Assembly: GCA_013306675.1 (NCBI GenBank)
Contig: JABLUY010000015.1
Coordinates: forward strand, 224,834-288,833
From: Thraustochytrium sp. TN22
Taxonomy: Eukaryota; Sar; Bigyra; Thraustochytrida; Thraustochytriidae
Direction of reading: 5' to 3'
Length of the DNA stretch: 64,000 nt
Part shown: piece after piece, positions 26,365 to 64,000 of the stretch
Layout: each line of letters starts with the position of its first letter
Position numbering within the stretch: position 1 is the stretch's first letter
Translations under genes and position numbers: made by a program
Notes under the pieces: model-generated
The model's input: the letters and a program-made list of their open reading frames with translations, nothing else
Told to the model about the DNA's origin: nothing
Database searches by the model: none

Positions 26365-29300
26365 CTAATCCAGCAAGGTAGATGCAAGCAAGTTGCGGTA
26401 AAAGCGCTGCACGGGCTCTGGCAGCGTCGCCCCAGAGTCAGATGCGGCCTTGAGCACGTCTAGCGCCTGCTGGACGAGGCGGGTCGCCTCTTCGGCCGGC
26501 CTCGGGTCTCGATTGCCATACAGGTCCTTGGCGCTGTGCAGACTTGCATCGAGGGATCGCCAGAACACGTTCACCGCGATGCTCGCGGTCTCGGCGCGGG
26601 CGTTGTGCGGCCACAGCGCCGGCATGTAAAGCGCCTGGCCCGCGTGCAGCTGCACCTCCATCGCGCGTGCGCGTGCGCGCGCGAAGGCGGACCCAGCGGG
26701 CTGCCCGTCGATGTCGACGACCGTGGATGTCGACCCTCGCATCCCGAGGTCGCAGACGTCCTCCGGGCGGAAAATCACCATCCGCTTGCTGCCGTGCAAC
26801 TGGTAGAGGACGTTTGCTGCGCAGTCGTAGTGGGTCCACAGTTGCAGGCCGGCCGTCGCGATGCGCAGGACGGAAGAAAAGTAGGCCTGGTCGCCCTCCT
26901 CCCCGACAAATTCGGTCGGGAACCTCAACCCAGAGGCATCGGCGAGCTCTTCAAAGTCGCGCCAGAAGTGCGCGCGGTCTTTGCGCGCGTTCGCGCCCAA
27001 GGCGCGCAAGTACGTGGGCGGCGTGTTTGGGTCGCGCACCGCCTCGAGCAGGCCCAGCATGCTGGTGATCTCGAAGCGGAAGGACTTGCGCACGAAGCTC
27101 AGCCGTTCATCGTTGTCCTGCGCAACGTGGACACTTACCTCCTTGCCGCCCGTGGCCGGACGAGCACCGCAGAACGCGACCAGCGCCTCGAGGTCCCAAA
27201 AACCTGCGTCGCATGTCGGCACGTCCTCCAGGAGTACCGGGATGCCGAGCGCGACAATGGCGCGTGCCTCCTCGCGCGACCGCGGGAACGGCCGGGTCGG
27301 CACCGCCAGTGGGCCGTTCTCCTCAGCGCCGTCAGTCCGTGGCCGAAGGATGCGCGCAGGGGGGGCGACGCTCGGCTGCGCAGGTGTCTCTCCCGGAGGC
27401 GCGGCGCCCCGTTCCACCCTCAGGACGTGGTGGCCCTCGGGACCGCCGCTGGCCGGGAGGCCCACGCCTTGGGGCGCGCACCAGACATCAATCACGAGGT
27501 GGTCTACATGAGGACTGTACGACTTGACGCGCTCCACATGCACGCAGGTCGCGTCCCAGTTCGCCGGGGCGTACGCCTTGAGCGTCTCCGTCAGGTTCGC
27601 CAGAAAGGCGTCGCGCTCCTTGCGGGCGACATTCTCATGCACGTGCAGCCAGCCGCCCCGGTCTGGCCGCAGCGCCTTCACTGCGGACGCCCAGAATGGG
27701 CGCGACGATGGGATCAGACCGAGGTTTACGCGATCCGCCACGCCCTCCAACGAGGCTGCCACAGACTCTCGGCAGTCCCCAGCGTGCACCGTGCACCGCC
27801 CCTGGACGCCGTTCAGGATGAGGTTCGCTCGAAGCGCCTGCAGGGCATCCGCGTTCCACTCGCACGCGTGAACGTGCGCAGCCTCTGCCTTGACCAGATA
27901 CGGCAGCGTGAAGTAGCCGATGCCTGCGAAGAGGTCCACAACAACCTGCCCGCGGCATGCAAAGCCCGCCACGCGCTGCTTCTCGGAGATATTGCCGGAC
28001 GAAAACATGCACTTCTCCATGTCGAACGAGTATAGGACGCCGTTCTGCTTCACCGTCACATGCGTGTCCGCGTGCTTGCGCGGGTACACCATCTTGGCGC
28101 GGCTCTGTCGTTTCACGCCCGGGTCGACCGTTTGCTGCGTCAGCACGCGCTCCGCTCCAGACAGCGTCGCGATCATCTTCCAGATGCAGTTCTCCGGCCG
28201 GTCTTGGCCAGCAGAGAGGATGGGCGCCCAGGCCTCTGCGGAGCGGAACGCCTCGCGAGGGATGATGACGACGTCCCCGAGGCGCTCCAGGCGCCGCGGC
28301 AGCTCACTCCGGAGCTTTTCCAGGTCCGCCGGGAGTACATCGCCCGGGAGGCGCGTGATGAGGCCATCCAGCCACACACGGAGCTGCTCGCGGATCGAGC
28401 GAGCCGCGCTTTGACCTTGCTTCCTCCGCGCGCCGCCCCTCTGCGAGGGCCCCGCGCCCGCCGCGGTCCCAGCAGCCAGCGCCAAGGGCTCTTGGGAATG
28501 GACTGGCGTCAAAGGAAGCTCCACGTCATCCAGCGCCTCGCTCGGAGCCAGCCCTGCCGCGGCGAGAGTGTCGACGGCATTGCGCAGTTCACCGCGCGTT
28601 GGGATGGCCATCTTGCCACTTGGCAGTTTAGCAATGCGACGCGACTTGTCGAAGAGGCCGGCCTTCTCCAGCACCGTCTTGCACCGCTTGCAGTCCGACG
28701 TCTCGACGGCAATGCCAGGCCCGTGCACCGCACGCGGCGGCTGCTTGGGCTGCTCAGGCTTGGGCTGCACAAGCTTTGCCTGCGGCGCTGCAGTCTTCTT
28801 CTGCTGCTTGCGCTGCTTGGGCTGCGTTTGTTGCTGGTCGTGCACAGGCGTTGCGGGCAGCGACAGTGCCTCAAACGCCTCGACCTGGTCGTCTTCCATC
28901 CCGGACGCAGCGAGCACGGCTAAGGCATCGCCGAGCGCCCCGCGAGTCGGAATGCCCATGAGGCCGCCTGGAAGCTTCGCAATGCGGCGGCTCTTGTCAA
29001 AGACGCCGGCCTTCTCGAGTGTGGTCTTGCAGAGTTTGCAAAGCGCCGCTGGCACGCCGAGGCCTGGCCCGTCCACCGCTGCACGGGCGGGAGCTACCGG
29101 AATCGTGGACGTGCAGCGCCCCACGAGGTCAGACACGCAGGCAATCGCGGACTCGCTGAGGCAGTTTCCAAACGAGAAGCAAAGAATGCCACCACCCAAG
29201 GCGAGCACATCGAGGTCGGCGCCGCGGCGGAGCGCGACCAGGGCGAACTTTTGATGCATGGACTGCGGCGCCCAGTCACCACCGTACTCGGCAGAGGATG

Positions 29301-30993
29301 AGATGTCCGCCCAAGAGCCCGTTGAGATGTCCAGCACGCTGGATCCGTGCTCGCGGTAGTCGATGCTCACGCCACCCACGACGAGCATGCGGCTCTCGTC
29401 GAGCGCAACAGCGCCGTGCGAAAAGCAAGGTCTCGGAATGGCGGCCGCCAGAGAGGTCCACACGTGGGATCGGAGGTCGAAAATGTGGACGTCACCTAGC
29501 ATGTGCGCCGGGGAGAGCGCCACGGTCGCATAGCCGCCATAGACGACCATGCGATGGCCCATGGCCACGGCCGAGTGGCCATAGCGGCCGGGAGGAATGC
29601 GCCCGCCCTGCGCGACCACGCTCTCGATGCGGACAGCAGCCCCATCTTCGCTGAGTGATATGCGAACCACGTCGTCCATGAGCGCTTCCGCGTCGCGCCC
29701 GCCGTACAGCCACGCCGTCTCGCCGTCAGGATCGGCCACGAGCGTGTGGCCCCATCGCGCCGCAAAGGCGCCAGCCCCGCAAACTTGCACGGGTCGCCAG
29801 GAGCAGGCCGGCAGCGCACCGTCGACAGCGAGGACAGCAACGTCATTCTGGGCCTGGTGTGGCGAGTGTCGCCCGCCTGCAATGAGCATGGCATTGCGGC
29901 CGGGTAGCCAGCACGCCGCGTGCTTGATCCGCGCGCTCGGAGCCTCGCCGCTCGGCGAAAGGCGGCTGCACGAATACGAGCGAGCGTTGTCTCCGGACTC
30001 GGCCCGCACGCAAATCACATCGTTGCGGCGCTCGAAGGAAGAGCCCTCGCACGGACCGAGTCCGCCAAAGACCAAGGCGGCCGGCCCGCGACCGGCCGGC
30101 ACGACGGCTGCAGAGTGGCCCCAGCGGCGAAGCAGGCTGGCGCCCTCCCCAGCGCTCGCCGCTAGTGGCATCCAGTCCAAGCGGGCCGAGACCGCACGCA
30201 CGGAACGGGCGGAGGCAGTCTGCAGCAGGGACGGCACGGATGCGGCAGGCTGGGGCTCGCTTCCCTCGCGGAGCATGGCCTTGAGCCTGGCGAAGAAAGC
30301 GTCGCGGCGCGCACAGCTGGCGCGGAACTTGTCTGCCGCGATCCGACACATGATCTCTACGGAGCGCGGCTCGAGCAGCGTCTCCCCACGCCACAAGACG
30401 GGCACTTCGAGAACGTTGGCGGAGGTGCGCACGCCGACGATGATCTTCTTCTGGCCCAATGAGATGCCAGACTCGCGCATGCCACAGTCCATGGCGACTC
30501 GCAGGAGTGCCTGCGCGCTGGCCTGGTCGCGGCACTGCACATGCAGCACGAAGGGCTCGTGCTTGAGCACGGCGCTGCCGCCCTTGCCGCGCACCGAGTC
30601 CAGGAGCGCCTGCACCTCCTCGGCGTCCAGCGCACGGTCGTGGTTCACGCCAAGCCACCGACCGGCGCCCTTGCGCGGGCCTGCTGCCGTTGTAGCCGGC
30701 ACTCTCGAGGCGCCGGCCTCGTGCATCGTCTCAGCCGCCTCAGCCGCCTCCGCGGCCTCCGCGGCCTCCGCGGCCTCCGCGGCCTCCGCGGCGGCGCCCT
30801 CCTCGTAGAACAGGCTCACGCGCCCGGAGCAAGAGCTCGTCGTCACGTAGTCCGGCGCCGAGTTCACCTCCTTGACCAGGTCCACCACCGCGGCGTCCAG
30901 CGACCCCTTGGGCGACTTGTCCGAGTATGCCTCCGTGCCCACGCTCGCCAGCTCCGCCAGCACCGCCCTCTTGTGCGCGTCGAAGGCTGCCAT
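26365..30993 (-). CDS. TYW2/TYW3: Wybutosine multi-enzyme: TYW3, Kelch, two TYW2-N modules, TYW2 methyltransferase, JmjC
   Basis: A 1542-residue single-frame fusion for making wybutosine at position 37 of phenylalanine tRNA. Residues 1-245 are TYW3 (DKSPKGSLDAAVVDLV, TTSSCSGRVSLF), interrupted by an Ala-Glu repeat at 66-90. Residues 290-615 are a Kelch propeller (repeated GG and RWGH/RYGH motifs). Two near-identical modules, CKLCKTTLEKAGVFDKSRRI (about 651) and CKRCKTVLEKAGLFDKSRRI (about 768), match the N-terminal part of TYW2. Residues 855-1175 are the TYW2 transferase, with SAM motif VDLFAGIGYFTLP and NLGLIPSS. Residues 1230-1480 are a JmjC dioxygenase with His1388, Asp1390 and His1463. 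Plants fuse TYW3-Kelch-TYW2; a C-terminal JmjC is known from yeast TYW4. The carboxyl-methylating LCM domain of TYW4 is absent. Confidence 0.93.
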   Translation of the reverse strand: MAAFDAHKRAVLAELASVGTEAYSDKSPKGSLDAAVVDLVKEVNSAPDYVTTSSCSGRVSLFYEEGAAAEAAEAAEAAEAAEAAEAAETMHEAGASRVPATTAAGPRKGAGRWLGVNHDRALDAEEVQALLDSVRGKGGSAVLKHEPFVLHVQCRDQASAQALLRVAMDCGMRESGISLGQKKIIVGVRTSANVLEVPVLWRGETLLEPRSVEIMCRIAADKFRASCARRDAFFARLKAMLREGSEPQPAASVPSLLQTASARSVRAVSARLDWMPLAASAGEGASLLRRWGHSAAVVPAGRGPAALVFGGLGPCEGSSFERRNDVICVRAESGDNARSYSCSRLSPSGEAPSARIKHAACWLPGRNAMLIAGGRHSPHQAQNDVAVLAVDGALPACSWRPVQVCGAGAFAARWGHTLVADPDGETAWLYGGRDAEALMDDVVRISLSEDGAAVRIESVVAQGGRIPPGRYGHSAVAMGHRMVVYGGYATVALSPAHMLGDVHIFDLRSHVWTSLAAAIPRPCFSHGAVALDESRMLVVGGVSIDYREHGSSVLDISTGSWADISSSAEYGGDWAPQSMHQKFALVALRRGADLDVLALGGGILCFSFGNCLSESAIACVSDLVGRCTSTIPVAPARAAVDGPGLGVPAALCKLCKTTLEKAGVFDKSRRIAKLPGGLMGIPTRGALGDALAVLAASGMEDDQVEAFEALSLPATPVHDQQQTQPKQRKQQKKTAAPQAKLVQPKPEQPKQPPRAVHGPGIAVETSDCKRCKTVLEKAGLFDKSRRIAKLPSGKMAIPTRGELRNAVDTLAAAGLAPSEALDDVELPLTPVHSQEPLALAAGTAAGAGPSQRGGARRKQGQSAARSIREQLRVWLDGLITRLPGDVLPADLEKLRSELPRRLERLGDVVIIPREAFRSAEAWAPILSAGQDRPENCIWKMIATLSGAERVLTQQTVDPGVKRQSRAKMVYPRKHADTHVTVKQNGVLYSFDMEKCMFSSGNISEKQRVAGFACRGQVVVDLFAGIGYFTLPYLVKAEAAHVHACEWNADALQALRANLILNGVQGRCTVHAGDCRESVAASLEGVADRVNLGLIPSSRPFWASAVKALRPDRGGWLHVHENVARKERDAFLANLTETLKAYAPANWDATCVHVERVKSYSPHVDHLVIDVWCAPQGVGLPASGGPEGHHVLRVERGAAPPGETPAQPSVAPPARILRPRTDGAEENGPLAVPTRPFPRSREEARAIVALGIPVLLEDVPTCDAGFWDLEALVAFCGARPATGGKEVSVHVAQDNDERLSFVRKSFRFEITSMLGLLEAVRDPNTPPTYLRALGANARKDRAHFWRDFEELADASGLRFPTEFVGEEGDQAYFSSVLRIATAGLQLWTHYDCAANVLYQLHGSKRMVIFRPEDVCDLGMRGSTSTVVDIDGQPAGSAFARARARAMEVQLHAGQALYMPALWPHNARAETASIAVNVFWRSLDASLHSAKDLYGNRDPRPAEEATRLVQQALDVLKAASDSGATLPEPVQRFYRNLLASTLLD

Positions 30994-49888: not shown

Positions 49889-50457
49889 CAGGCTGTGAAT
49901 GCCTGCCTGGCCTGGATCGTCTCTCACACCTCACAAAGAACGTATGGGCGGGCGGACGTGCGAGCGGGCGAGCGAGCGAGCGAGCGAGCAAGCGAGCAAG
50001 CTCGGCGCTCTCGCTTCCCCCGTTGTCTTTTTTCTCGCTCTCGCTCTCTGTCTCGCTCGGAAAAGGCCAGCGTGCGCGCCGCAAGCGTGCGTGCCGCACG
50101 TGCGTCTCCCCTTGCGGAAAGAGTTCGCGCCTCTCCCTGTCATCATCAGGGAGGCACGTACCAGGACGAGAACGAAATCTGTGACTTTATTTCCAAATCT
50201 TGTTCACTGCTCCAGAGACTCGGCGGCCTTGGCGCGCATCGCAGAGCGAGCAAGCTCGGCGCTCTCGCTTTCCCCGTTGTCTTTTTTCTCGCTCTCGCTC
50301 TCTGTCTCGCTCGGAAAAGGCCAGCGTGCGCGCCGCAAGCGTGCGTGCCGCACGTGCGCCTCACCTTGCGGAAAGAGTTTGCGCCTCTCCCTGTCATCAT
50401 CAGGGAGCCGCGTACCAAGACGAGAACGAAATCTGTGACTTTATTTCCAAATCTTCT
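49889..50457. other. Convergent 3' region containing a duplicated gene end
   Basis: Between the convergent WD40 and Mrd1 genes. A GAGC run (about 49970-49990) is followed by copy 1 of a 254-bp-period tandem duplication (see repeat). An AATAAA polyadenylation-type hexamer on the minus strand lies about a dozen bases after the Mrd1 stop, and an equivalent one after the stop preserved in copy 1. Confidence 0.7.
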
Positions 50458-50497
50458 TCACTGCTCCAGAGCCTCGGCGGCCTTGGCGCGCATCGCA
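49991..50497. repeat. Tandem duplication of the Mrd1 3' end, period 254 bp
   Basis: 49991-50243 and 50245-50497 are head-to-tail copies about 96 percent identical. Copy 2 contains the last codons and stop of Mrd1 plus its 3' flank. Copy 1 preserves on the minus strand an in-frame remnant reading MRAKAAESLEQ and a TGA (at 50204-50206), versus MRAKAAEALEQ in the gene. Confidence 0.95.
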
Positions 50498-55360: not shown

Positions 55361-58300
55361 TTATGAGGTGAGGAACTTCATGCTAACCTTGAGCTTGGTG
55401 CCGAGCTGCAGGATGAGGTCGTCAGCAGAGATGCCGGCAGAAGAGTCGGCGTGCTGCTCGAGGCCTAGACGCTTCTCGAAGCTGGAGACGAGATGCAAAA
55501 AGGCGAAGAAGTTGCGCTTCTCAAGCGGACTCGCGGTCTTCTCGAGCCACTCGCCGACGGAGCCTTTCGGGGCGAGTGGCACGCTAGACTCGGGCAACAA
55601 AAACGCCTCGTGCCAGTCTGCGAGCAAAGACGGCTCGGCTTTGCCCTGGGCAAGGCGCTGCAGGGCCGTCTCCATCGAAGCGGAAGCTGAGACGGAGGTC
55701 ACCGCGCCGCCGCCGTGGCCGCCATGGCCGCTGCTGCCGCCGCCAGCAGCCTCGGCGCTCTCGTCGCCAATGACGGCCCCAGAGGGGGGAGCAGGGTTCG
55801 CCTTGGGCGCAAAGGCACGTGTGAACTCAAGGAAGCTAATCTTTCCATCACGGTCCATGTCGACGCGGCGGATGAGCTCGGCCGCCTCCTCTGGGCTGAC
55901 GGGGAAGCCGATCTTGATCATGGCGCCAGTGAGCTCGCTCACAGAGATTTTCCCGTCGTTGTTGCGGTCAAAGTGGCGGAAGCACTCGCGCAGCGTGACC
56001 CCGTTGCCCATGAGCGAGGCAACAAACTCGCTGATTCGCTGCTCCACGCCGTAGACCGCGTCGTCGTCCAGAGACAGAAAGGAGACGAACTGCTTATAAG
56101 CGAACTTGTCCTCGCCGCGAAGGTCGAACCGCGCGGCTAGACATGCAAGGTCCTCGTTGGTGAGCGCCCAGCCCTGGTTCGTGGCCACCTTGCGCAAGCT
56201 GCGCATGCTCACGTAACCCTTGCCATCCTGATCAGCGTTTTTGAAGGCGCGCAGAATGGTGGAGAACCCCGTCCGCTTCTGCAGCGCGACCTTGCGCAGC
56301 TTATGACGAATTGCGCTCTCCACCTCGCCGGCGTGCGTCGTGCCCACCAGCACGCCGGCGGCGTTAAGCGCCCACTCGTCGCGGTCGGACCCCTTCGTAG
56401 TGAACATGAGGAAGTGCCTGTAGTCCAAGTGCTCCCCGGCGCCGTCGGGGTCCAGGCGCTGCAGCACCTTGGTTACCTCCTCTGCACTCAGCTCGAAGCC
56501 GAGGCTCGCCAGGGCGCGGGACATCTCTGCGTGGGAGGCGAGGCCATCCTTGTCCACATCAAAGAGCTCGAAAGCGTCTGCGTAGTCCTTCACGGCGCCC
56601 GTCCCCAGAGCGTCCGCGATGGCCTGGCGCAGTCGATGCAGCACCTGGAAGACGACAGGGTCGACGCCCTCCTTCTCGAGCCGCTCGCGCTCCGCTCGCA
56701 GCGCCGCGATGCCCTTTTGCACGTCAAGCTTAGACGTGGCGCGCTTCCATGCGGGCTCAGCGGCCGCCGCGGCGCCCTCCGACCGGCAGTACAGTAGAAC
56801 CTCCTCGTACCTGACCTGACCGTCCTCGCCAAGGAAGCTGGCGAGAAAGTCGAGCAGCGTGGCCTTCTCCATGCGTTTCAGCGAGCTTGCGCGAGCCAGC
56901 TGGTCGGCTAGCGCCTTACGGTCTGCGCCGCCCGTGCCGTCCTTGTCAAGCTTCTCGCGAACCGCGGCTTCAAGGTCCTGCTCCAGGGCTGCCTTGCGCA
57001 GGCGCGGTAGGAGGCGCCCAAGACGCGCGGCATGGCCTTCGTCGTCTTGCAGGCCCTGCGCAGCCTCCTTACAAGCAGCCACCAGATCGCGGTAGAAGAG
57101 CTTTGAGTGGCTGCCTCGGCCGTACTTGCGCGCGAGCTTCTTCAAGAGATTGCCAGAGACACGCTTGTTGATCCCCAGCGCCTTGAGCACGCGCTCGAGC
57201 TTGCTGACAGAAATGTAGCCGCGGCGGTCCGGGTCGGCGCGCTCAAAGACGGCTTTGAAGCGCTTGCGCGAGTCGCGCACCAGGACTTTGCCGAGGTAGA
57301 GCTCGAAATTGCGTACCACGGTACCGCCGGCCGTCACCTCGTCGCCGTCGGACTCCCACGCATCGTCGCCCTCCGCGTCGCTCTCCGACCACTCGCTCGA
57401 GCTCCGGGACGGGCTGCGGCTCGTGCGCCGCGCCGAGGCCGACCGGGCGCGCTCCCTGCGGCCGCGCGCGGGCCGAGAGCGCCCTCGTGACAACCTCGAG
57501 CTGCCGCGACGTCCGCCGCCGTCTCGCGAGTCCTCACCACTGCTCGCGCTGGTCGGGCTCTGGGAGCGCCGGCCGGCGCGGCGGCGGCGCGGCGGCGATG
57601 AGGACACGGCGCGGCGGCCGCCGTCGCGATCGTGCCGCTTGAGCATCTGAATGAACTCGCGATACGAAAGCCGGCCGTCTCCGTTGGCGTCCAGATGGCG
57701 CACGATGGAGCGCAGCTCTTCCTTGGTGTAGCGGATACCAAGCTTGTCGAGCGCGTGACCAAGCTCGATACGGCTCACGTAGCCGTCGCCGTCGACGTCG
57801 AAGGAATTGAAGACCTCCTGGTAGTTTCGCATCGCGCCCGAGCGGAAGCCCTTCTTGAGGATGCGCGCGAGTAGCGCGCTCAGCTCGTCGTCATTGTCGC
57901 TGCTCGCGCCGGAGTCCTCCCCCGAGGATGTCGGCTCGCCGCGAGCACGTCGCGGACTCGCCTGGCGGCGCGGCGACCGCGAGTCGGACCGCTTCAGAGA
58001 CCGAATGAGGCGCCCCGCCACGTGCGTTTCGCGGTCTCCGTCATCGTAGTCGATGTCGTAGGTGCCGTCCGCGCGCACGCGCGTGATCTTGCCCCTGTAG
58101 AACTTCGCCTTGCCCTTGAAGCGGGCCTCCACGGTCTCACCTTGGCGGAAGGCCGCATCTTGAGGGCTATCGTCCGAAGCAGAATGCGGGGCGTCGCGAC
58201 TCTCACGGCCGCCGCGACGTGGCGAGCGCGAGCCGCCGCGCGCCTTGGCCACGCCCCGCTTGCTGCGGATGAGGTTGCGCTTCACGCGCAGCTCGCGGTC

Positions 58301-61300
58301 CCCATCATCGTACAGAATGGCGTAGCTCCCGTCACGGTTCACGCGCGTAATCTTGCCGCCATAGTACTTGGCCTTGCCCTTGAAACGCGCCTCCACGCGG
58401 TCGCCCTCGTGCAGCGGGCTCTCTGGGTCATTGTCATCCTCCGTGTCCGAGGTTCTTTCCTCACGACCCCCACGCCGCGGGCTGGCACGCCGGCGATGAA
58501 TGCCGAGGTCGTCGTTGCTGCTGGCGCTGCTGGGCTCTTCAAGCGACTTGACATCCTCCGGTGCCACGTGGCGCTGGAAATCGCCGTCATCGAACTTGAC
58601 GTCACAGGAGCCGTCCGGGTGAATACGGTCCACGCGGCCCTTGTAAAAGCGGCGGCCGTTCTGGAACCTCGCCTCCACTCGGTCCCCCTCGCGAAGCCGG
58701 GAGCGCTGCTGCCGCCGCTGCTGCTGCTGCTGCTGCTGCTGCTGCCCACGCGGCGAGCGGCTGCCCTGACCACGTCGCTCCATCGCGGCAGGCCCGCCGC
58801 CCTCCTTCCGGATGCTGCGGCGGACGACATTGCGTTCGCGGTCGCCGTCGTCGTACGCGATGTCAAAGGTTCCGTCGCCGTTTACACGTGAGATCTTGCC
58901 CTTGTAGTACTTGGCGCCGCCGCGATACTTGGCTTCCACGCGATCGCCACGCGCCAGCTCATCGTCGGCACTGCTAGGTTCCTCTGCATCCGACGTCGTG
59001 CTGCGTCCCACGCGGGTCGACTGCGTGCCTGTGCGCCGTGAACCTTCCAGACTGCGGATTTTAGAGCGTGCTACCATGCGCTCGCGGTCTCCGTCCTCGT
59101 AAGAAATGTCGGCAGACCCGTTGCTGTGTACACGAGTGATCTTTCCCTTGTAGTACTTGGTGCCGCCGCGGTAGCGCGCCTCCACGCGGTCGCCAATGCG
59201 CAGTTGCGGTTCCTCGTCCGCTTCGTCCTCTTGGAAGCCAACGCCTCTGCGTCTGGGGCTGCGCGACCCGGTGTCGCGCGTTTCCCCGGGACGCCGGATC
59301 TTGCTGCGCGGCACCTGAAGCTCACGGTCCCCGTCGTCGTAGTAGATGACATAGGTTCCATTCGCGTTTTTGCGGGCAATTTTGCCGGGATAGTACCGCT
59401 TGCCGCCCTTGTAGAGCGCCTCCACGCGGTCGCCGCGTGCAAGCTCCTCCTCGCCACCTTGGTCTGCGGCGGCCTCAGCAGCACCGCCCAGTGGGCGCAC
59501 ACTCTCGGCCGGCACGGCGCTCTCGCTGTCGCCGTCGTCATAGGCGATGCGGTAGGTCCCATCCGGGTTTGCACGCACGATCTTACCCGGATAGTAGCGT
59601 CGGCCGCCCTTGTAGCGTGCCTCCACGCGGTCGCCGCGCTTGAGAGTCTGGCTGCGCTGCTCCTCTTCTTCCTCGCTATCCTCGCCACGGCGCAATGCCC
59701 GCCGCGGGGAGGTCCGCCCCACGCTACGGATCAGGCTCTCGTCGACTGCGCGCTCTTTGTCTCCGTCTGCGTAGTCAATGGCGTAGGTGCCGTCGCGGTT
59801 CACGCGCATGATGGTGCCCTTGTAGTACTTGGACTTGCCCTTGAAGCGCGCCTCAACCTCCTGACCCACATGGAAGCCCTGCGTGCCAGCCTCGTCCGTC
59901 TCGCTGCCTGCCCCAGCATCATCGCCATTCTCCAGGGACCTCACCATACTGGGATCCACACGGCGCTCCTTGTCGCCATCGTCGTAGTTGATGTCGAAGG
60001 AGCCATTTGGGTTGACGCGAGACACCGTGCCCTTGAACCACTTGCGCCCTGCGCGAAAACGAGCCTCCACACGACTTCCGACGTCGATGGGAGGCGGCAT
60101 GCGGCCGCGGCGGCGTTGGCCACTTGCGCCAAAATCCTCGTTTTCCGAGGTCTCGCCACCGCCCTGTGCATCAAAGCGATCTGTGCCCCGGCGCCCGCCG
60201 GCAGCTCGTCCCTGTGCACCGCCTCCCTTCGCCCTGCAAGCGGGCCGCCGGATAAAGCGCGCCGGAACACGTGTCTCGCGATCGCCGTCATCGTATTTGA
60301 TGTCGCATGCGCCGCTTGCATAGGCCTTCTCCACGACACCCGAGTACCACTTGGCCCCGCGTCGGAACTGGGCCTCGACACGGTCGCCCCTGTTTAATGG
60401 CGCGTCGGGATCGAGATTGGTGTCGCCAAGGTCCTCCTCCTCGTCACTGACCTCGTCACCACGACCACCACGACCACCATGACCCAGCACCTCCGCACGT
60501 CGACCACCCCGGCCGCCATGCGTGCTTCGCAGCTTGATTTTGGAGGCCGCAACCCGACGCTCGAAATCGCCGTCATCGTATGCAATGTCGCACGAGCCGT
60601 CCGAGTAAGCTCGCTTGACGACGCCCGTGTAGTACTTGGCGCCGCCCTTGTAGCGAGCTTCGACGTTGTCGCCCACGCGCGGCGCGGCTCCTCTCGCGCC
60701 CTCCGCGTCGCTCGTGCTGTCGTTGTCGATTGCGGCGAACTGACTCATGGAGTCCACAGTTGGCATCCCGACCCGGATCATGGCAGGCGGCACTCGCGTC
60801 TCGGTGTCCCCATTGTCGAACATAATGTCGTAGGAACCATCCGGGCGCTCTCGCTCGATGACACCGCCCGAATAGCTCCGGGAGCCGCGCTGCCGGGCCT
60901 CAATGCGCTGGCCAGGGCGGAAGGTTTGGCCGTCACCCACAGGGATTCCCTGAGGCTCCGCCTCGCGGGAGTCGCGGCCCATTCCTCCTGCCCGTCGCGA
61001 GGGCGATGCTGTGCGGCCGCTCTGTCCGCTGGCCTGCCGCACCGCTCGGACGAAGATACCGTAGCGCAGCTTGCCCTGGTCATCCAATGCGCGCATGACT
61101 CGGCGCAGCACGGAGACGTCCAGACCGAGTCGCGCGCGCCGCACGCTTCGCTCGAAGTCGCGGGCTTCGACTTTACCAGACGCGTCCTGATCGAGCATCT
61201 CGAAGGTGTCCTGCAGGTCTGTGATGACTTTTTCCTGGGCATCAAGCGGCCCGAGCATATCGGCGATCCTCGCAGCCTGGGCATCCTTGTCCGCGCCACC

Positions 61301-62197
61301 CCGAGGCGACGACGAGGTCTTGCGTGGGGACCCACCACCAGGGCCCCGCCCATCGTTGTCCGTCTTGCGAATTAGGCCGGGGTCCACGCGCTGCTCTGCA
61401 TCGCCGTCGTCGTATGCGATGTCGAAGGTCCCGTCTCGATTCGCACGCTTGATGATTCCGGGGAAATACTTGCGGCCTCGTCCAAAGCGCGCCTCAACGC
61501 GGTCGCCGACTCGCAGCTCGTTGGGCTCGTCGCTGCTCTGCTCGCCGCCCGTGTCGCCCATGTCGCCCATGGCGCCGCCGCCACCACTGCCCGCAGGGCC
61601 CACCTGCTCGAGCAGGCGGTTGTACTCCACCGTGGTGCGGCCATCACCGTAGCTCTGCATCGCATCGCGCAAGTCACCAGGGCTAAAGTCGACCTTCAGG
61701 CTCTTGAGCACGCGCCCGAGGTCGCGCGCGTGGATCGTACCATCAGCCTTGCGGTCTGCCGCCTCGAATGCTCGGAGCGCACGATCCAGGTCGCGTTGCG
61801 TGGGGAGCTCCGCCGCGAGTTTGTCGAGCAATGCAATGCGAGTGCCCCCGCTACCGTTGCGACCTCGGTCTCGGCCCGCTCCGGAGCCTCTCGCGCGAGG
61901 CGATTCATCCGTGTCGTTCATTCCGCGAGCTGCAGGGCGCCCGCCGCCCTTGACCCGGATGTTGCGCTCCGGCACGCGTTGCTCTGCGTCGCCGTCGTCG
62001 TAGTTCACATCAAAGGTTCCATCCCTGTTCTCACGAGAAATGCGGCCGGCGTACCACTTGGCGCCTCCACGAAACCTGGCCTCAACGCGAGTACCCACGC
62101 TGAGCCCTGTCGCGCCGGCGTCCATGCGGCTCCCACCGCGCGCGCCAGCGCGCCCGCCCGCAGCAGCGCTGCCAGGTCTGCGCGCCGCGAGGGGCAT
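55361..62197 (-). CDS. Giant multi-Tudor-like and EF-hand protein
   Basis: A 2278-residue single-frame protein. Fourteen Tudor/Agenet-like repeats of ~50 residues start at about 33, 228, 427, 506, 602, 704, 775, 852, 919, 999, 1081, 1168, 1262 and 1350. Each follows GDRVEARYKGGAKYYKGKI, then a RVNxDGTFDIAYDDGDRE strand pair and a closing IR. Arg/Ser-rich linkers separate them, one with a Gln run (about 1151-1160). EF-hand-like segments also lie between early repeats (about 120-195, 320-390). The last ~820 residues hold several EF-hands, with canonical loops DVDGDGYVSRIE (1466), DANGDGRLSYRE (1502), DVDKDGLASHAE (1879), DQDGKGYVSMRS (1988), DRNNDGKISVSE (2075) and DMDRDGKISFLE (2112), plus degenerate ones. 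A calcium-responsive scaffold is likely; the partner bound by the Tudor modules is unknown. Confidence 0.9.
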   Translation of the reverse strand: MPLAARRPGSAAAGGRAGARGGSRMDAGATGLSVGTRVEARFRGGAKWYAGRISRENRDGTFDVNYDDGDAEQRVPERNIRVKGGGRPAARGMNDTDESPRARGSGAGRDRGRNGSGGTRIALLDKLAAELPTQRDLDRALRAFEAADRKADGTIHARDLGRVLKSLKVDFSPGDLRDAMQSYGDGRTTVEYNRLLEQVGPAGSGGGGAMGDMGDTGGEQSSDEPNELRVGDRVEARFGRGRKYFPGIIKRANRDGTFDIAYDDGDAEQRVDPGLIRKTDNDGRGPGGGSPRKTSSSPRGGADKDAQAARIADMLGPLDAQEKVITDLQDTFEMLDQDASGKVEARDFERSVRRARLGLDVSVLRRVMRALDDQGKLRYGIFVRAVRQASGQSGRTASPSRRAGGMGRDSREAEPQGIPVGDGQTFRPGQRIEARQRGSRSYSGGVIERERPDGSYDIMFDNGDTETRVPPAMIRVGMPTVDSMSQFAAIDNDSTSDAEGARGAAPRVGDNVEARYKGGAKYYTGVVKRAYSDGSCDIAYDDGDFERRVAASKIKLRSTHGGRGGRRAEVLGHGGRGGRGDEVSDEEEDLGDTNLDPDAPLNRGDRVEAQFRRGAKWYSGVVEKAYASGACDIKYDDGDRETRVPARFIRRPACRAKGGGAQGRAAGGRRGTDRFDAQGGGETSENEDFGASGQRRRGRMPPPIDVGSRVEARFRAGRKWFKGTVSRVNPNGSFDINYDDGDKERRVDPSMVRSLENGDDAGAGSETDEAGTQGFHVGQEVEARFKGKSKYYKGTIMRVNRDGTYAIDYADGDKERAVDESLIRSVGRTSPRRALRRGEDSEEEEEQRSQTLKRGDRVEARYKGGRRYYPGKIVRANPDGTYRIAYDDGDSESAVPAESVRPLGGAAEAAADQGGEEELARGDRVEALYKGGKRYYPGKIARKNANGTYVIYYDDGDRELQVPRSKIRRPGETRDTGSRSPRRRGVGFQEDEADEEPQLRIGDRVEARYRGGTKYYKGKITRVHSNGSADISYEDGDRERMVARSKIRSLEGSRRTGTQSTRVGRSTTSDAEEPSSADDELARGDRVEAKYRGGAKYYKGKISRVNGDGTFDIAYDDGDRERNVVRRSIRKEGGGPAAMERRGQGSRSPRGQQQQQQQQQRRQQRSRLREGDRVEARFQNGRRFYKGRVDRIHPDGSCDVKFDDGDFQRHVAPEDVKSLEEPSSASSNDDLGIHRRRASPRRGGREERTSDTEDDNDPESPLHEGDRVEARFKGKAKYYGGKITRVNRDGSYAILYDDGDRELRVKRNLIRSKRGVAKARGGSRSPRRGGRESRDAPHSASDDSPQDAAFRQGETVEARFKGKAKFYRGKITRVRADGTYDIDYDDGDRETHVAGRLIRSLKRSDSRSPRRQASPRRARGEPTSSGEDSGASSDNDDELSALLARILKKGFRSGAMRNYQEVFNSFDVDGDGYVSRIELGHALDKLGIRYTKEELRSIVRHLDANGDGRLSYREFIQMLKRHDRDGGRRAVSSSPPRRRRAGRRSQSPTSASSGEDSRDGGGRRGSSRLSRGRSRPARGRRERARSASARRTSRSPSRSSSEWSESDAEGDDAWESDGDEVTAGGTVVRNFELYLGKVLVRDSRKRFKAVFERADPDRRGYISVSKLERVLKALGINKRVSGNLLKKLARKYGRGSHSKLFYRDLVAACKEAAQGLQDDEGHAARLGRLLPRLRKAALEQDLEAAVREKLDKDGTGGADRKALADQLARASSLKRMEKATLLDFLASFLGEDGQVRYEEVLLYCRSEGAAAAAEPAWKRATSKLDVQKGIAALRAERERLEKEGVDPVVFQVLHRLRQAIADALGTGAVKDYADAFELFDVDKDGLASHAEMSRALASLGFELSAEEVTKVLQRLDPDGAGEHLDYRHFLMFTTKGSDRDEWALNAAGVLVGTTHAGEVESAIRHKLRKVALQKRTGFSTILRAFKNADQDGKGYVSMRSLRKVATNQGWALTNEDLACLAARFDLRGEDKFAYKQFVSFLSLDDDAVYGVEQRISEFVASLMGNGVTLRECFRHFDRNNDGKISVSELTGAMIKIGFPVSPEEAAELIRRVDMDRDGKISFLEFTRAFAPKANPAPPSGAVIGDESAEAAGGGSSGHGGHGGGAVTSVSASASMETALQRLAQGKAEPSLLADWHEAFLLPESSVPLAPKGSVGEWLEKTASPLEKRNFFAFLHLVSSFEKRLGLEQHADSSAGISADDLILQLGTKLKVSMKFLTS

Positions 62198-62885: not shown

Positions 62886-64000
62886 CTACAGACTGTGAGC
62901 TCGGCAGAATAAACTTCCAGCAACAGAGTGGCGGAGACAGGCGGTTTCCTGACAGCGCCGACCACCTCCGTGCGCCCTGCAGAAAGGAAGACCGCCGCTC
63001 TCGGCACTCTTGTCGCAGTCTGGGTGCTGGCAGCGCCGACCACCTCCGTGCGCCTTGCAGAAAGGAAGATCGCCGCTCCTGGCGCTCTTGTCGCAGTCTG
63101 GGTGCTGGCAGCGCCGACCACCTCCGTGCGCCTTGCAGAAAGGAAGACCGCCGCTCTGGGCGCTCTTGTCGCAGTCTGGGTGCTGGCAGCGCCGACCACC
63201 TCCGTGCGCCTTGCAGAAAGGAAGACCGCCGCTCTGGGCGCTCTTGTCGCAGTCTGGGTGCTGGCAGCGCCGACCACCTCCGTGCGCCTTGCAGAAAGGA
63301 AGACCGCCGCTCTGGGCGCTCTTGTCGCAGTCTGGGTGCTGGCAGCGCCGACCACCTCCGTGCGCCTTGCAGAAAGGAAGACCGCCGCTCTGGGCGCTCT
63401 TGTCGCAGTCTGGGTGCTGGCAGCGCCGACCACCTCCGTGCGCCTTGCAGAAAGGAAGACCGCCGCTCTGGGCGCTCTTGTCGCAGTCTGGGTGCTGGCA
63501 GCGCCGACCACCTCCGTGCGCCTTGCAGAAAGGAAGACCGCCGCTCTGGGCGCTCTTGTCGCAGTCTGGGTGCTGGCAGCGCCGACCACCTCCGTGCGCC
63601 TTGCAGAAAGGAAGACCGCCGCTCTGGGCGCTCTTGTCGCAGTCTGGGTGCTGGCAGCGCCGACCACCTCCGTGCGCCTTGCAGAAAGGAAGACCGCCGC
63701 TCTGGGCGCTCTTGTCGCAGTCTGGGTGCTGGCAGCGCCGACCACCTCCGTGCGCCTTGCAGAAAGGAAGACCGCCGCTCTGGGCGCTCTTGTCGCAGTC
63801 TGGGTGCTGTCAGCGCCGACCACCTCCGTGCGCGTTGCAGAAAGGAAGACCGCCGCTCTGGGCGCTCTTGTCGCAGTCTGGGTGCTGACAGCGCCGACCA
63901 CCTCCGTGCGCCTTGCAGAAAGGAAGACCGCCGCTCTGGGCGCTCTTGTCGCAGTCTGGGTGCTGACAGCGCCGACCACCTCCGTGCGCGATGCAGAAAG
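62886..64000 (-). CDS. Partial Cys/His (GGGRRC) repeat protein, 3' end, with one in-frame TGA
   Basis: On the minus strand one frame of the 78-bp tandem array reads as 26-residue units GGGRRCQHPDCDKSAQSGGL plus PFCKAH, a C-x4-C-x11-C-x2-H pattern followed by GGGRR. This is the small putative zinc-binding repeat found in plant WRKY19-like and many stramenopile proteins. The final, diverged unit (CQETACLRHSVAGSLFCRAH, then SL and TAG at 62886-62888) keeps the spacing, which argues that this frame is the real one. The gene is cut by the window end, so its start is unseen; there is no ATG in the frame here. One unit has TGA at 63810-63812 where the first Cys codon (TGC) is expected: a nonsense change, a sequencing error, or less likely Sec. 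It may be a decaying gene. Confidence 0.55.
62955..64000. repeat. 78-bp near-identical tandem repeat array
   Basis: Thirteen full units and a partial one, differing at only a few positions, run off the window end. Two other frames are also open through the array, including a 389-codon ATG frame at 62810-63979, because 78 is divisible by three. Confidence 0.97.

What the first reader, a model, noticed from the sequence alone, without database searches (positions are those of the whole stretch)
55361..62197. Fourteen Tudor-like repeats plus a calcium-binding EF-hand tail in one 2278-residue protein
Each ~50-residue repeat keeps the VEARYKGG...YYKGKI...DGTFDIAYDDGD pattern, while linkers are Arg/Ser-rich and the C-terminal third has at least six canonical EF-hand loops. 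Repetitive ligand-binding modules with a calcium switch suggest a scaffold that changes state with calcium, for example on the flagellum or cortex. I know of no defined function for this combination. This is my leading candidate for an undescribed system.
Basis: partly seen in the sequence, partly recalled or inferred. Interest (0 to 1): 0.75.

Follow-up and report, generated by a model that had tools for sequence, protein, structure and literature searches.

The report
Giant Tudor-repeat scaffold with calcium-binding tail
A single-celled eukaryote encodes a giant protein with 14 small peptide-gripping modules and calcium-binding modules; it is one of a family of such giants, and a smaller protein pairing the same modules turns up in some archaea, but what it does in the cell is still inferred.

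Summary
The observation largely holds. The minus strand carries one open frame of 2278 codons (chance about 3e-26) with 14 Tudor repeats. One repeat, modelled, folds as a five-strand barrel (pLDDT 92.7) like Tudor domains of 53BP1, PHF20, TDRD3 and PHF1; 13 of 14 repeats keep three aromatic positions and the acidic position of the methyl-binding pocket. The EF-hand claim is overstated: four strict canonical loops, not six; two degenerate EF pairs also sit between the first Tudors.
It is not unique. Ten more frames of this genome match Tudor_5, four over the cut-off; Tudor plus a clear EF pair recurs in C410, C95 and C431; an Arl13-type GTPase carries two such Tudors. Linker motifs SPRR and SD[TA]E are shared with C104 and C410. 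In archaea, 15 of 194 genomes of one phylum match a Tudor-plus-EF protein.
Best reading: a multivalent methyl-peptide scaffold tuned by linker phosphorylation and calcium, in a flagellated, perhaps thraustochytrid-like protist. Ligand, calcium response and location (flagellum/cortex versus nucleus) are not shown. New variant of a known kind.

The parts
55361..62197 (-). single open frame, 2278 aa: 14 Tudor repeats, EF-hand modules, patterned linkers
61955..62095 (-). Tudor repeat 1 (res 35-81)
61610..61777 (-). degenerate EF pair between Tudors 1 and 2 (res 141-196)
   Evidence: local EF profile 27.2 bits; Pfam EF-hand_6 E 0.0021, below cut-off
61367..61507 (-). Tudor repeat 2
61034..61222 (-). 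degenerate EF pair between Tudors 2 and 3 (res 326-388)
   Evidence: local EF profile 76.9 bits (one of the profile's own members); Pfam EF-hand_7 E 1.4e-4, below cut-off
60773..60913 (-). Tudor repeat 3 (the one repeat with a degraded pocket)
60533..60673 (-). Tudor repeat 4
60248..60388 (-). Tudor repeat 5
59939..60079 (-). Tudor repeat 6
59726..59866 (-). Tudor repeat 7
59495..59635 (-). Tudor repeat 8
59294..59434 (-). Tudor repeat 9
59054..59194 (-). Tudor repeat 10
58808..58948 (-). Tudor repeat 11 (the one modelled by AlphaFold2)
58547..58687 (-). Tudor repeat 12
58265..58405 (-). Tudor repeat 13
58001..58141 (-). Tudor repeat 14
57632..57829 (-). canonical EF-hand pair (res 1457-1522; loops at 1467 and 1503)
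57338..57562 (-). Arg/Ser-rich low-complexity stretch (res about 1546-1620)
   Evidence: seen; no Pfam match
57068..57265 (-). degenerate EF pair (res 1645-1710)
   Evidence: EF-hand_7 E 4.9e-5, below cut-off
56393..56590 (-). EF pair with one near-canonical loop (res 1870-1935)
   Evidence: EF-hand_7 31.4 bits, above cut-off; EFCAB6-like together with the next pair
56069..56260 (-). degenerate EF pair (res 1980-2043)
   Evidence: EF-hand_7 E 2.9e-5, below cut-off
55802..55996 (-). canonical EF-hand pair (res 2068-2132; loops at 2077 and 2113)
55364..55690 (-). C-terminal stretch of unknown fold (res 2170-2278)
   Evidence: no Pfam match up to E 0.1 for res 2140-2278; one PDB hit at E 0.85, not significant

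Best explanation
A giant multivalent assembly scaffold. Fourteen Tudor barrels on flexible linkers grip short peptides carrying methylated arginine or lysine (or RG-rich stretches), each weakly, so that binding depends on many contacts. Linker sites of two kinds, basic SPRR and acidic SD[TA]E, look like kinase sites whose phosphorylation would change charge and so tune assembly. At least two complete EF-hand pairs bind calcium and change partner binding or packing. Shown by computation: repeats, fold of one repeat, pocket residues, EF pairs, linker motifs, paralogues. Inferred: ligand, phosphorylation, calcium effect. My slightly preferred site is the flagellar apparatus or cell cortex of a thraustochytrid-like protist, with the nucleus nearly as likely.
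For: 14 Tudor_5 stretches; barrel model with pLDDT 92.7, whose best solved matches are mostly Tudor domains, with an MRG2 chromodomain, a PWWP and a ZGPAT entry among the 50 rows; pocket complete in 13 of 14 repeats. Paralogue C104: pN below pS in 171 of 171 pairs of 19 of its 21 repeats (means 0.049 and 0.474; the divergent first and last repeats were left out), so the repeat is held by selection. Linker motifs beyond within-linker shuffles: [ST]P[RK][RK] in 5 of 13 P0001 linkers (shuffled mean 0.12), 13 of 20 in C104 (0.08), 12 of 17 in C410 (0.27); SDTE in 14 of 20 C104 linkers (0.00); basic motif before the acidic one in 23 of 23 linkers holding both (1 of 1 in P0001, 14 of 14 in C104, 8 of 8 in C410). 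Canonical EF pairs. Radial-spoke protein; Arl13-type GTPase with two C-terminal Tudors.
Against: No ligand, localisation, expression or calcium data. The fifth pocket position (Tyr1523 of 53BP1, recalled) is Asp in 14 of 14 repeats, so methyl binding may differ or fail. C95 and C409 have Tudor arrays with few or none of the linker motifs, and C409 has no EF match by the local profile, so neither feature is essential to the family. In P0001 itself only 1 of 13 linkers holds both motifs. The EF-tail model is poor (pLDDT 42.5). Tudors also sit on HECT frames and an ankyrin/WW frame, so Tudor here does not point to one place. The EFCAB6 lead rests mostly on many weak matches summed: best single stretch 20.7 bits of 71.5 for the top chain; the top EFCAB6 chain has no stretch passing 0.01 on its own, the next four have one.
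Confidence: 0.45

Rival explanations
1. A nuclear scaffold: the Tudor array reads methylated histones or RNA-binding proteins, SPRR motifs contact DNA or take CDK/SR-kinase phosphates, and SD[TA]E motifs are CK2 sites that recruit phosphopeptide readers, as the SDT repeats of MDC1 do (recalled; MDC1 papers seen only as a search listing).
For: Closest solved relatives are largely chromatin readers (53BP1, PHF20, PHF1, KDM4A, SGF29). SPRR and SD[TA]E motifs are over-represented in P0001, C104 and C410, and ordered in the linkers that hold both.
Against: Tudors of the same genome occur on an Arl13-type ciliary GTPase and HECT frames. Extensive EF arrays are not typical of chromatin readers (recalled). 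No targeting signal was tested.
Confidence: 0.3
2. An axonemal or basal-body structural protein: the EF tail docks as EFCAB6/CFAP115 do inside doublet microtubules, the EF pairs being mostly structural, and the Tudor array reaches out to methylated axonemal proteins.
For: EFCAB6 is the top solved match of the tail (E 6.7e-19, 71.5 bits against 60.4 for the best calmodulin; E 1.9e-23, 86.5 bits against 64.1 for the best other chain, for residues 1870-2046, collinear over about 171 residues). Control: an EF region of paralogue C410 gives calmodulins, with no EFCAB6 among the 60 rows shown of 217. CFAP115 with four EF pairs in Tetrahymena is in print (PMC10105768, passages). Radial-spoke protein present.
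Against: Single-stretch scores are low (20.7 bits for the top chain); the total comes from summing many EF hands. Pfam EF-hand_11 was below its cut-off in the tail (E 0.014), and the own-genome search with it rang nowhere, controls included, so it tells nothing. Bulky charged linkers would not fit inside a microtubule (inference).
Confidence: 0.25
3. Tudor repeats that have lost reading ability and serve as interchangeable beads in a long elastic or space-filling protein; EF-hands are structural.
For: Repeat numbers and spacings vary; C104 repeats are nearly interchangeable in protein sequence (83% rough mean identity). The fifth pocket residue is Asp throughout.
Against: Pocket residues are kept in 13 of 14 P0001 repeats although overall identity is 54%; purifying selection in C104 repeats.
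Confidence: 0.2

Closest known systems
53BP1 / PHF20 / PHF1 / TDRD3 Tudor domains
   Same: Fold and pocket register: 53BP1 1486-1535 aligned to model residues 1-51 at 34% identity; Foldseek TM about 0.8.
   Different: One or a few Tudors there, 14 here; no EF-hands in those proteins (recalled); Tyr1523 of the 53BP1 pocket is Asp here.
Arl13 with C-terminal Tudor in Aurantiochytrium limacinum and Phytophthora sojae (PMC8358228, passage read)
   Same: Tudor fused to a ciliary-type GTPase in stramenopiles; this genome has an Arl13-type GTPase with two Tudors (C87). The same passage describes EF-hand-bearing Arl13 in chlorarachniophytes.
   Different: A GTPase, not a giant array; Tudor and EF-hand are described there on Arl13 of different groups, not together.
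EFCAB6 / CFAP115 axonemal EF-array proteins
   Same: Tandem EF pairs with degenerate loops; collinear match over two pairs.
   Different: EFCAB6 and CFAP115 have no Tudor repeats (recalled); P0001 has two fully canonical pairs.
Multi-Tudor germ-granule scaffolds (Drosophila Tudor, TDRD1/6; recalled)
   Same: Many Tudors in one chain acting as a multivalent scaffold for methylarginine ligands.
   Different: Those are extended Tudors with a different surrounding domain; no EF-hands, no SPRR/SD[TA]E linkers (recalled).
Bacterial secreted chromo-like domain proteins with EF-hand (PMC5906684, section 8 read)
   Same: Chromo-like SH3 barrel together with EF-hand in one protein; the section also mentions rare chromo-like domains in euryarchaea.
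   Different: Described there as extracellular; 2-6 tandem chromo domains; other partners such as caspase-like peptidases.
Archaeal Tudor/EF-pair protein of Euryarchaeota MAGs (found here)
   Same: Tudors with aromatic pocket positions plus an EF pair in one protein.
   Different: About 335-540 aa, one or two clear Tudors plus a degenerate one, and in some a C-terminal Tudor-knot chromo barrel.

Membership tests
Tudor domain (Pfam Tudor_5 / Tudor-like clan) | profile match above the curated cut-off | tested here: met
   PF18359 243.8 bits against 31, 14 stretches
Tudor domain (Pfam Tudor_5 / Tudor-like clan) | five-strand SH3-like barrel | tested here: met
Tudor domain (Pfam Tudor_5 / Tudor-like clan) | aromatic pocket for methylated side chains | tested here: inconclusive
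   three aromatic positions and Asp/Asn present in 13 of 14 repeats, fifth position Asp rather than Tyr; 53BP1 pocket residue numbers are recalled, register; geometry not inspected
Tudor domain (Pfam Tudor_5 / Tudor-like clan) | binding of methyl-Lys/Arg peptides | not testable with these tools
   needs peptide binding assays
EF-hand calcium-binding protein | EF-hand profile match | tested here: met
   EF-hand_7 182.3 bits against 30, EF-hand_1 7 stretches
EF-hand calcium-binding protein | canonical 12-residue loops | tested here: met
   four strict loops, fewer than the six claimed
EF-hand calcium-binding protein | calcium-driven conformational change | not testable with these tools
   needs purified protein
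EFCAB6/CFAP115 | best match by sequence among solved chains | tested here: inconclusive
   top rows, but a sum of weak stretches; with the whole protein as query the 60 rows shown are calmodulins and calmodulin fusions; control C410 gives calmodulin
EFCAB6/CFAP115 | EF-hand_11 (DJBP) domain | tested here: inconclusive
   E 0.014, 16.7 bits against 21.7 cut-off for one segment; genome search uninformative
EFCAB6/CFAP115 | location in the doublet microtubule lumen | not testable with these tools
   none
Arl13 (paralogue C87) | closest to Arl13B among small GTPases | tested here: met
   5di3_B Arl13B E 1.2e-28 over query 12-229, against Arl3 E 1.8e-23

The most novel reading that the evidence does not exclude
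Tudor-plus-EF is a portable calcium-gated methyl-reader module shared between protists and archaea: archaeal members combine Tudor barrels with aromatic pocket residues, an EF pair and in some a chromo barrel, which would mean that archaea read methylated proteins under calcium control and that protists expanded the same module into giant phospho-tuned scaffolds.
Probability: 0.1. Interest if true: 0.75.

Novelty: new variant of a known kind. Interest (0 to 1): 0.5.

Why it matters
If the reading holds, this protist family is an extreme case of a multivalent methyl-reader scaffold with calcium sensors and spaced candidate kinase sites in one chain, good material for studying how valency, charge and calcium control assembly. 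Tudor domains on an Arl13-type GTPase in the same genome make a role for methyl reading in flagella testable. The archaeal Tudor-plus-EF family asks whether archaea use methyl readers inside the cell.

Tried and rejected
Searches that gave nothing: the search for related loci in viral contigs with the whole protein (600 pattern matches, none confirmed) and with the repeat alignment (197, none); a degenerate VEARYKGG...YY pattern in viral contigs and genome contigs (0 each); the DG..D...YDDGD pattern in viral contigs (0). Rfam at gathering scores (0 matches) and tRNA scan (0) of the window. AlphaFold2 of residues 1440-2278 without relatives was too poor to use, so no fold search was made with it. 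CPAP/Sas-4 topped the profile search by E-value, but with no stretch passing on its own: a sum of short beta-repeat matches, rejected as a relative. RGG motifs are not clearly beyond shuffles in P0001 (26 against mean 14.2, maximum 27), so I do not claim self-binding through RG linkers. EF-hand_11 genome search rang nowhere, controls included: dropped. The Tudor tree (71 rows, 50 columns; C104 and C410 thinned, domains under 45 residues left out) has 8 of 68 inner branches starred and its bootstrap had not settled; it separates C95+C409 from the rest (100/94) and keeps the 7 archaeal rows together (93/49); their place beside the Arl13 Tudors (91/81) is not firm, and the P0001 repeats do not form one group.

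Literature. Searches: of which I saw titles, abstract starts and term counts. None of the listed papers was seen to describe a Tudor-repeat plus EF-hand giant or a Poseidoniales Tudor protein; lists were cut and the library is partial, so this does not show absence. Passages or a section read: PMC5906684, PMC8358228, PMC10105768, PMC12221091 (92: tudor 0, EF-hand 0 in the main text), PMC12258536, PMC11642839. Recalled, from no call: 53BP1 pocket residue numbers, SPKK-type DNA motifs, MDC1 SDT repeats, Drosophila Tudor/TDRD architecture.
Full report
What is there. The minus strand of window 55361-62197 holds one frame of 2278 codons from ATG to stop. At this base composition so long a frame is not expected by chance (about 3e-26). 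The genome (G000, 37.9 Mb in 453 contigs; window at C66:224834-288833) is eukaryotic by its genes: neighbouring frames match a TYW3-kelch-TYW2-cupin fusion, RRM and PUF proteins, PP2C and an OTU protease. It has a radial-spoke protein (PF04712, E 6.8e-45), so it is probably flagellated, and no chlorophyll-binding family match (PF00504, 0 matches; 1 of 14 control genomes rang, Synechococcus). An Arl13 with a C-terminal Tudor is reported for the thraustochytrid Aurantiochytrium limacinum (PMC8358228, passage), this genome has an Arl13-type protein with two, and thraustochytrid genomes span 30-60 Mb (PMC12258536, passage). I infer a thraustochytrid-like protist. Against it, the same paper gives 45% GC for one Aurantiochytrium, and this window is 56-73% GC in 2-kb steps; the Phytophthora Arl13 also bears a Tudor; I placed the genome by no species tree.

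EF-hands. A local profile built from six P0001 EF pairs finds seven pairs in P0001 (residues 141-196, 326-388, 1457-1522, 1645-1710, 1870-1935, 1980-2043, 2068-2132); six of the seven were its own members, so only the first is an independent hit. The independent evidence is the Pfam scan by segments: EF-hand_7 passes its cut-off in the pairs at 1457, 1870 and 2068 and stays below it in the others. Strict canonical loops number four, in two pairs. The claim of six is not met, and two degenerate pairs sit among the N-terminal Tudors. Against solved structures the whole protein gives calmodulins, but residues 1640-2050 and 1870-2046 give EFCAB6, a doublet microtubule protein, first (E 6.7e-19; E 1.9e-23, collinear over two pairs). 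Against that reading, the score is a sum of many weak stretches (best 20.7 bits of 71.5 for the top chain); for it, an EF region of paralogue C410, as a control, gives calmodulins and shows no EFCAB6 among the 60 rows shown of 217.

Linkers. In P0001, [ST]P[RK][RK] occurs 7 times against 0.3 expected, at most 3 in 500 shuffles. Comparing linkers between Tudors: P0001 5 of 13, C104 13 of 20, C410 12 of 17 hold it, against shuffled means of 0.12, 0.08 and 0.27. S[DE][TASND][DE] is in 5 of 13, 14 of 20 and 9 of 17, against means of 0.71, 0.25 and 0.94 (maxima 4, 2 and 4). Where a linker has both an SP[RK] and the acidic motif, the basic one comes first in 1 of 1, 14 of 14 and 8 of 8. So two paralogous giants have a plainly patterned linker; P0001 shares the motifs, but only one of its linkers holds both. 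C95 has neither motif (0 of 13 each); C409 has [ST]P[RK][RK] in 1 and the acidic motif in 3 of 15 linkers (shuffled mean of the latter 1.10). That these are kinase sites is inference.

Family in this genome. Tudor_5 gives 54 matches at E <= 0.001 in 11 frames, the window's included (a lower bound by the tool's own note). Five of the 11 have matches over the cut-off there (C66, the window; C104; C410; C431; C95); six do not. Local profile counts: P0001 14, C104 21, C410 18, C409 16, C95 14, C332 2, C87 2, and one each in C196, C431, C419, C211 (the last two weak, 15.2 and 12.0 bits). Pfam was run on seven of the ten paralogue frames, several in part; not on C409, C419 and C211. C410, a 6937-aa frame, also has C2, PUB and EF pairs; C95 an EF pair; C431 an EF pair, ankyrin repeats and WW; C104 a SAM domain and a deaminase-like stretch below cut-off, with only weak EF matches by the local profile (24.2 and 8.6 bits); C332 and C196 HECT domains; C87 an Arf-family GTPase nearest Arl13B. 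Hence the finding is one member of an expanded family. In C104, 171 of 171 pairs among 19 of its 21 repeats have pN below pS (means 0.049 and 0.474; the divergent first and last were left out), which shows selection on the repeat. The 91 P0001 pairs have mean pN 0.33 and pS 0.64, near saturation at silent sites.

Archaea. A DNA pattern for DG[TS][YF]D..YDDGD.E, scanned over a collection of prokaryote species genomes, hit seven contigs, all titled Euryarchaeota or, in one case, Candidatus Thalassarchaeaceae MAGs; that they are marine is my inference from the titles. All seven encode a protein of about 350 aa, alike by eye: zinc-ribbon-like start, one degenerate and two clear Tudors, and an EF pair. 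Pfam, run on three of the seven, puts Tudor_3, Tudor_5 and EF-hand_6 above cut-off in each, and the zinc ribbon above it in one of three. The P0001 repeat profile scores both clear Tudors of two members at 33-50 bits. Searching 194 genomes of that phylum (drawn from a larger group) with this protein, 28 match at E <= 0.001, and 15 of 194 match in the Tudor/EF part at E below 1e-10; the other 13 match only the N-terminal end, six of them with stops. Of eight further loci read, 8 of 8 have a Tudor match and 7 of 8 an EF match by local profile; the eighth has EF-hand_7 at E 1.7e-4, below the Pfam cut-off. Pfam Tudor-knot passes its cut-off in 2 of 4 such proteins scanned. Many genomes and a consistent architecture argue against contamination. 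Whether archaea and eukaryotes joined Tudor and EF once or twice is not resolved.

Mechanism and place. Shown: modules, pocket residues, EF loops, motifs, paralogues. Inferred: methyl-peptide binding, phosphorylation, calcium response. For the flagellum: radial-spoke protein, Arl13-type protein with Tudors, EFCAB6-like tail. For the nucleus: chromatin-reader relatives, SPRR and SD[TA]E linkers. I lean slightly to cytoskeletal or flagellar use, and hold the nuclear rival almost as likely; the odds given for the readings overlap, since place and mechanism are partly separate questions. The finding is a real gene-like frame, a new variant of known kinds of domain protein, of moderate interest; the archaeal Tudor-plus-EF family is the most unexpected by-product.

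Noticed in passing
L001-L007, L057-L066: Archaeal protein family joining a zinc-ribbon or SPDG-type N-terminus, Tudor domains with aromatic pocket positions, an EF-hand pair and, in some, a C-terminal Tudor-knot chromo barrel; in L005 an FtsZ gene lies about 2.2 kb away.
   Followed up: partly
G000:C87:23839-25791 (L054): Arl13-type GTPase with two C-terminal Tudor domains, like the reported Aurantiochytrium limacinum Arl13.
   Followed up: partly
G000:C410:91415-112225: Open frame of 6937 aa with C2, 18 Tudors, several EF pairs and PUB matches; about eight of its 17 Tudor linkers are near-copies of RSPRR...SDAEETDAEQGF.
   Followed up: partly
window 26365-30993 (-): One frame fusing TYW3, kelch, TYW2 and a cupin/JmjC domain, that is, several steps of wybutosine synthesis in one chain (the pathway is recalled).
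   Followed up: no
window 62949-64000: 78-bp tandem array, 13.5 copies, 98% matches, upstream of the Tudor gene and running to the window's end.
   Followed up: no
window 49991-50497: Two 254-bp direct copies, 96% matches.
   Followed up: no
G000:C332 and C196: HECT-domain frames carrying one or two Tudors; C332 also SPRY and Cul7 domains.
   Followed up: no
window 55364-55690 (-): C-terminal 109 residues of the protein match no Pfam family and no solved structure significantly, and the last 139 residues match none of the ten paralogue frames, some of them partial, by BLASTP at 1e-3.
   Followed up: partly
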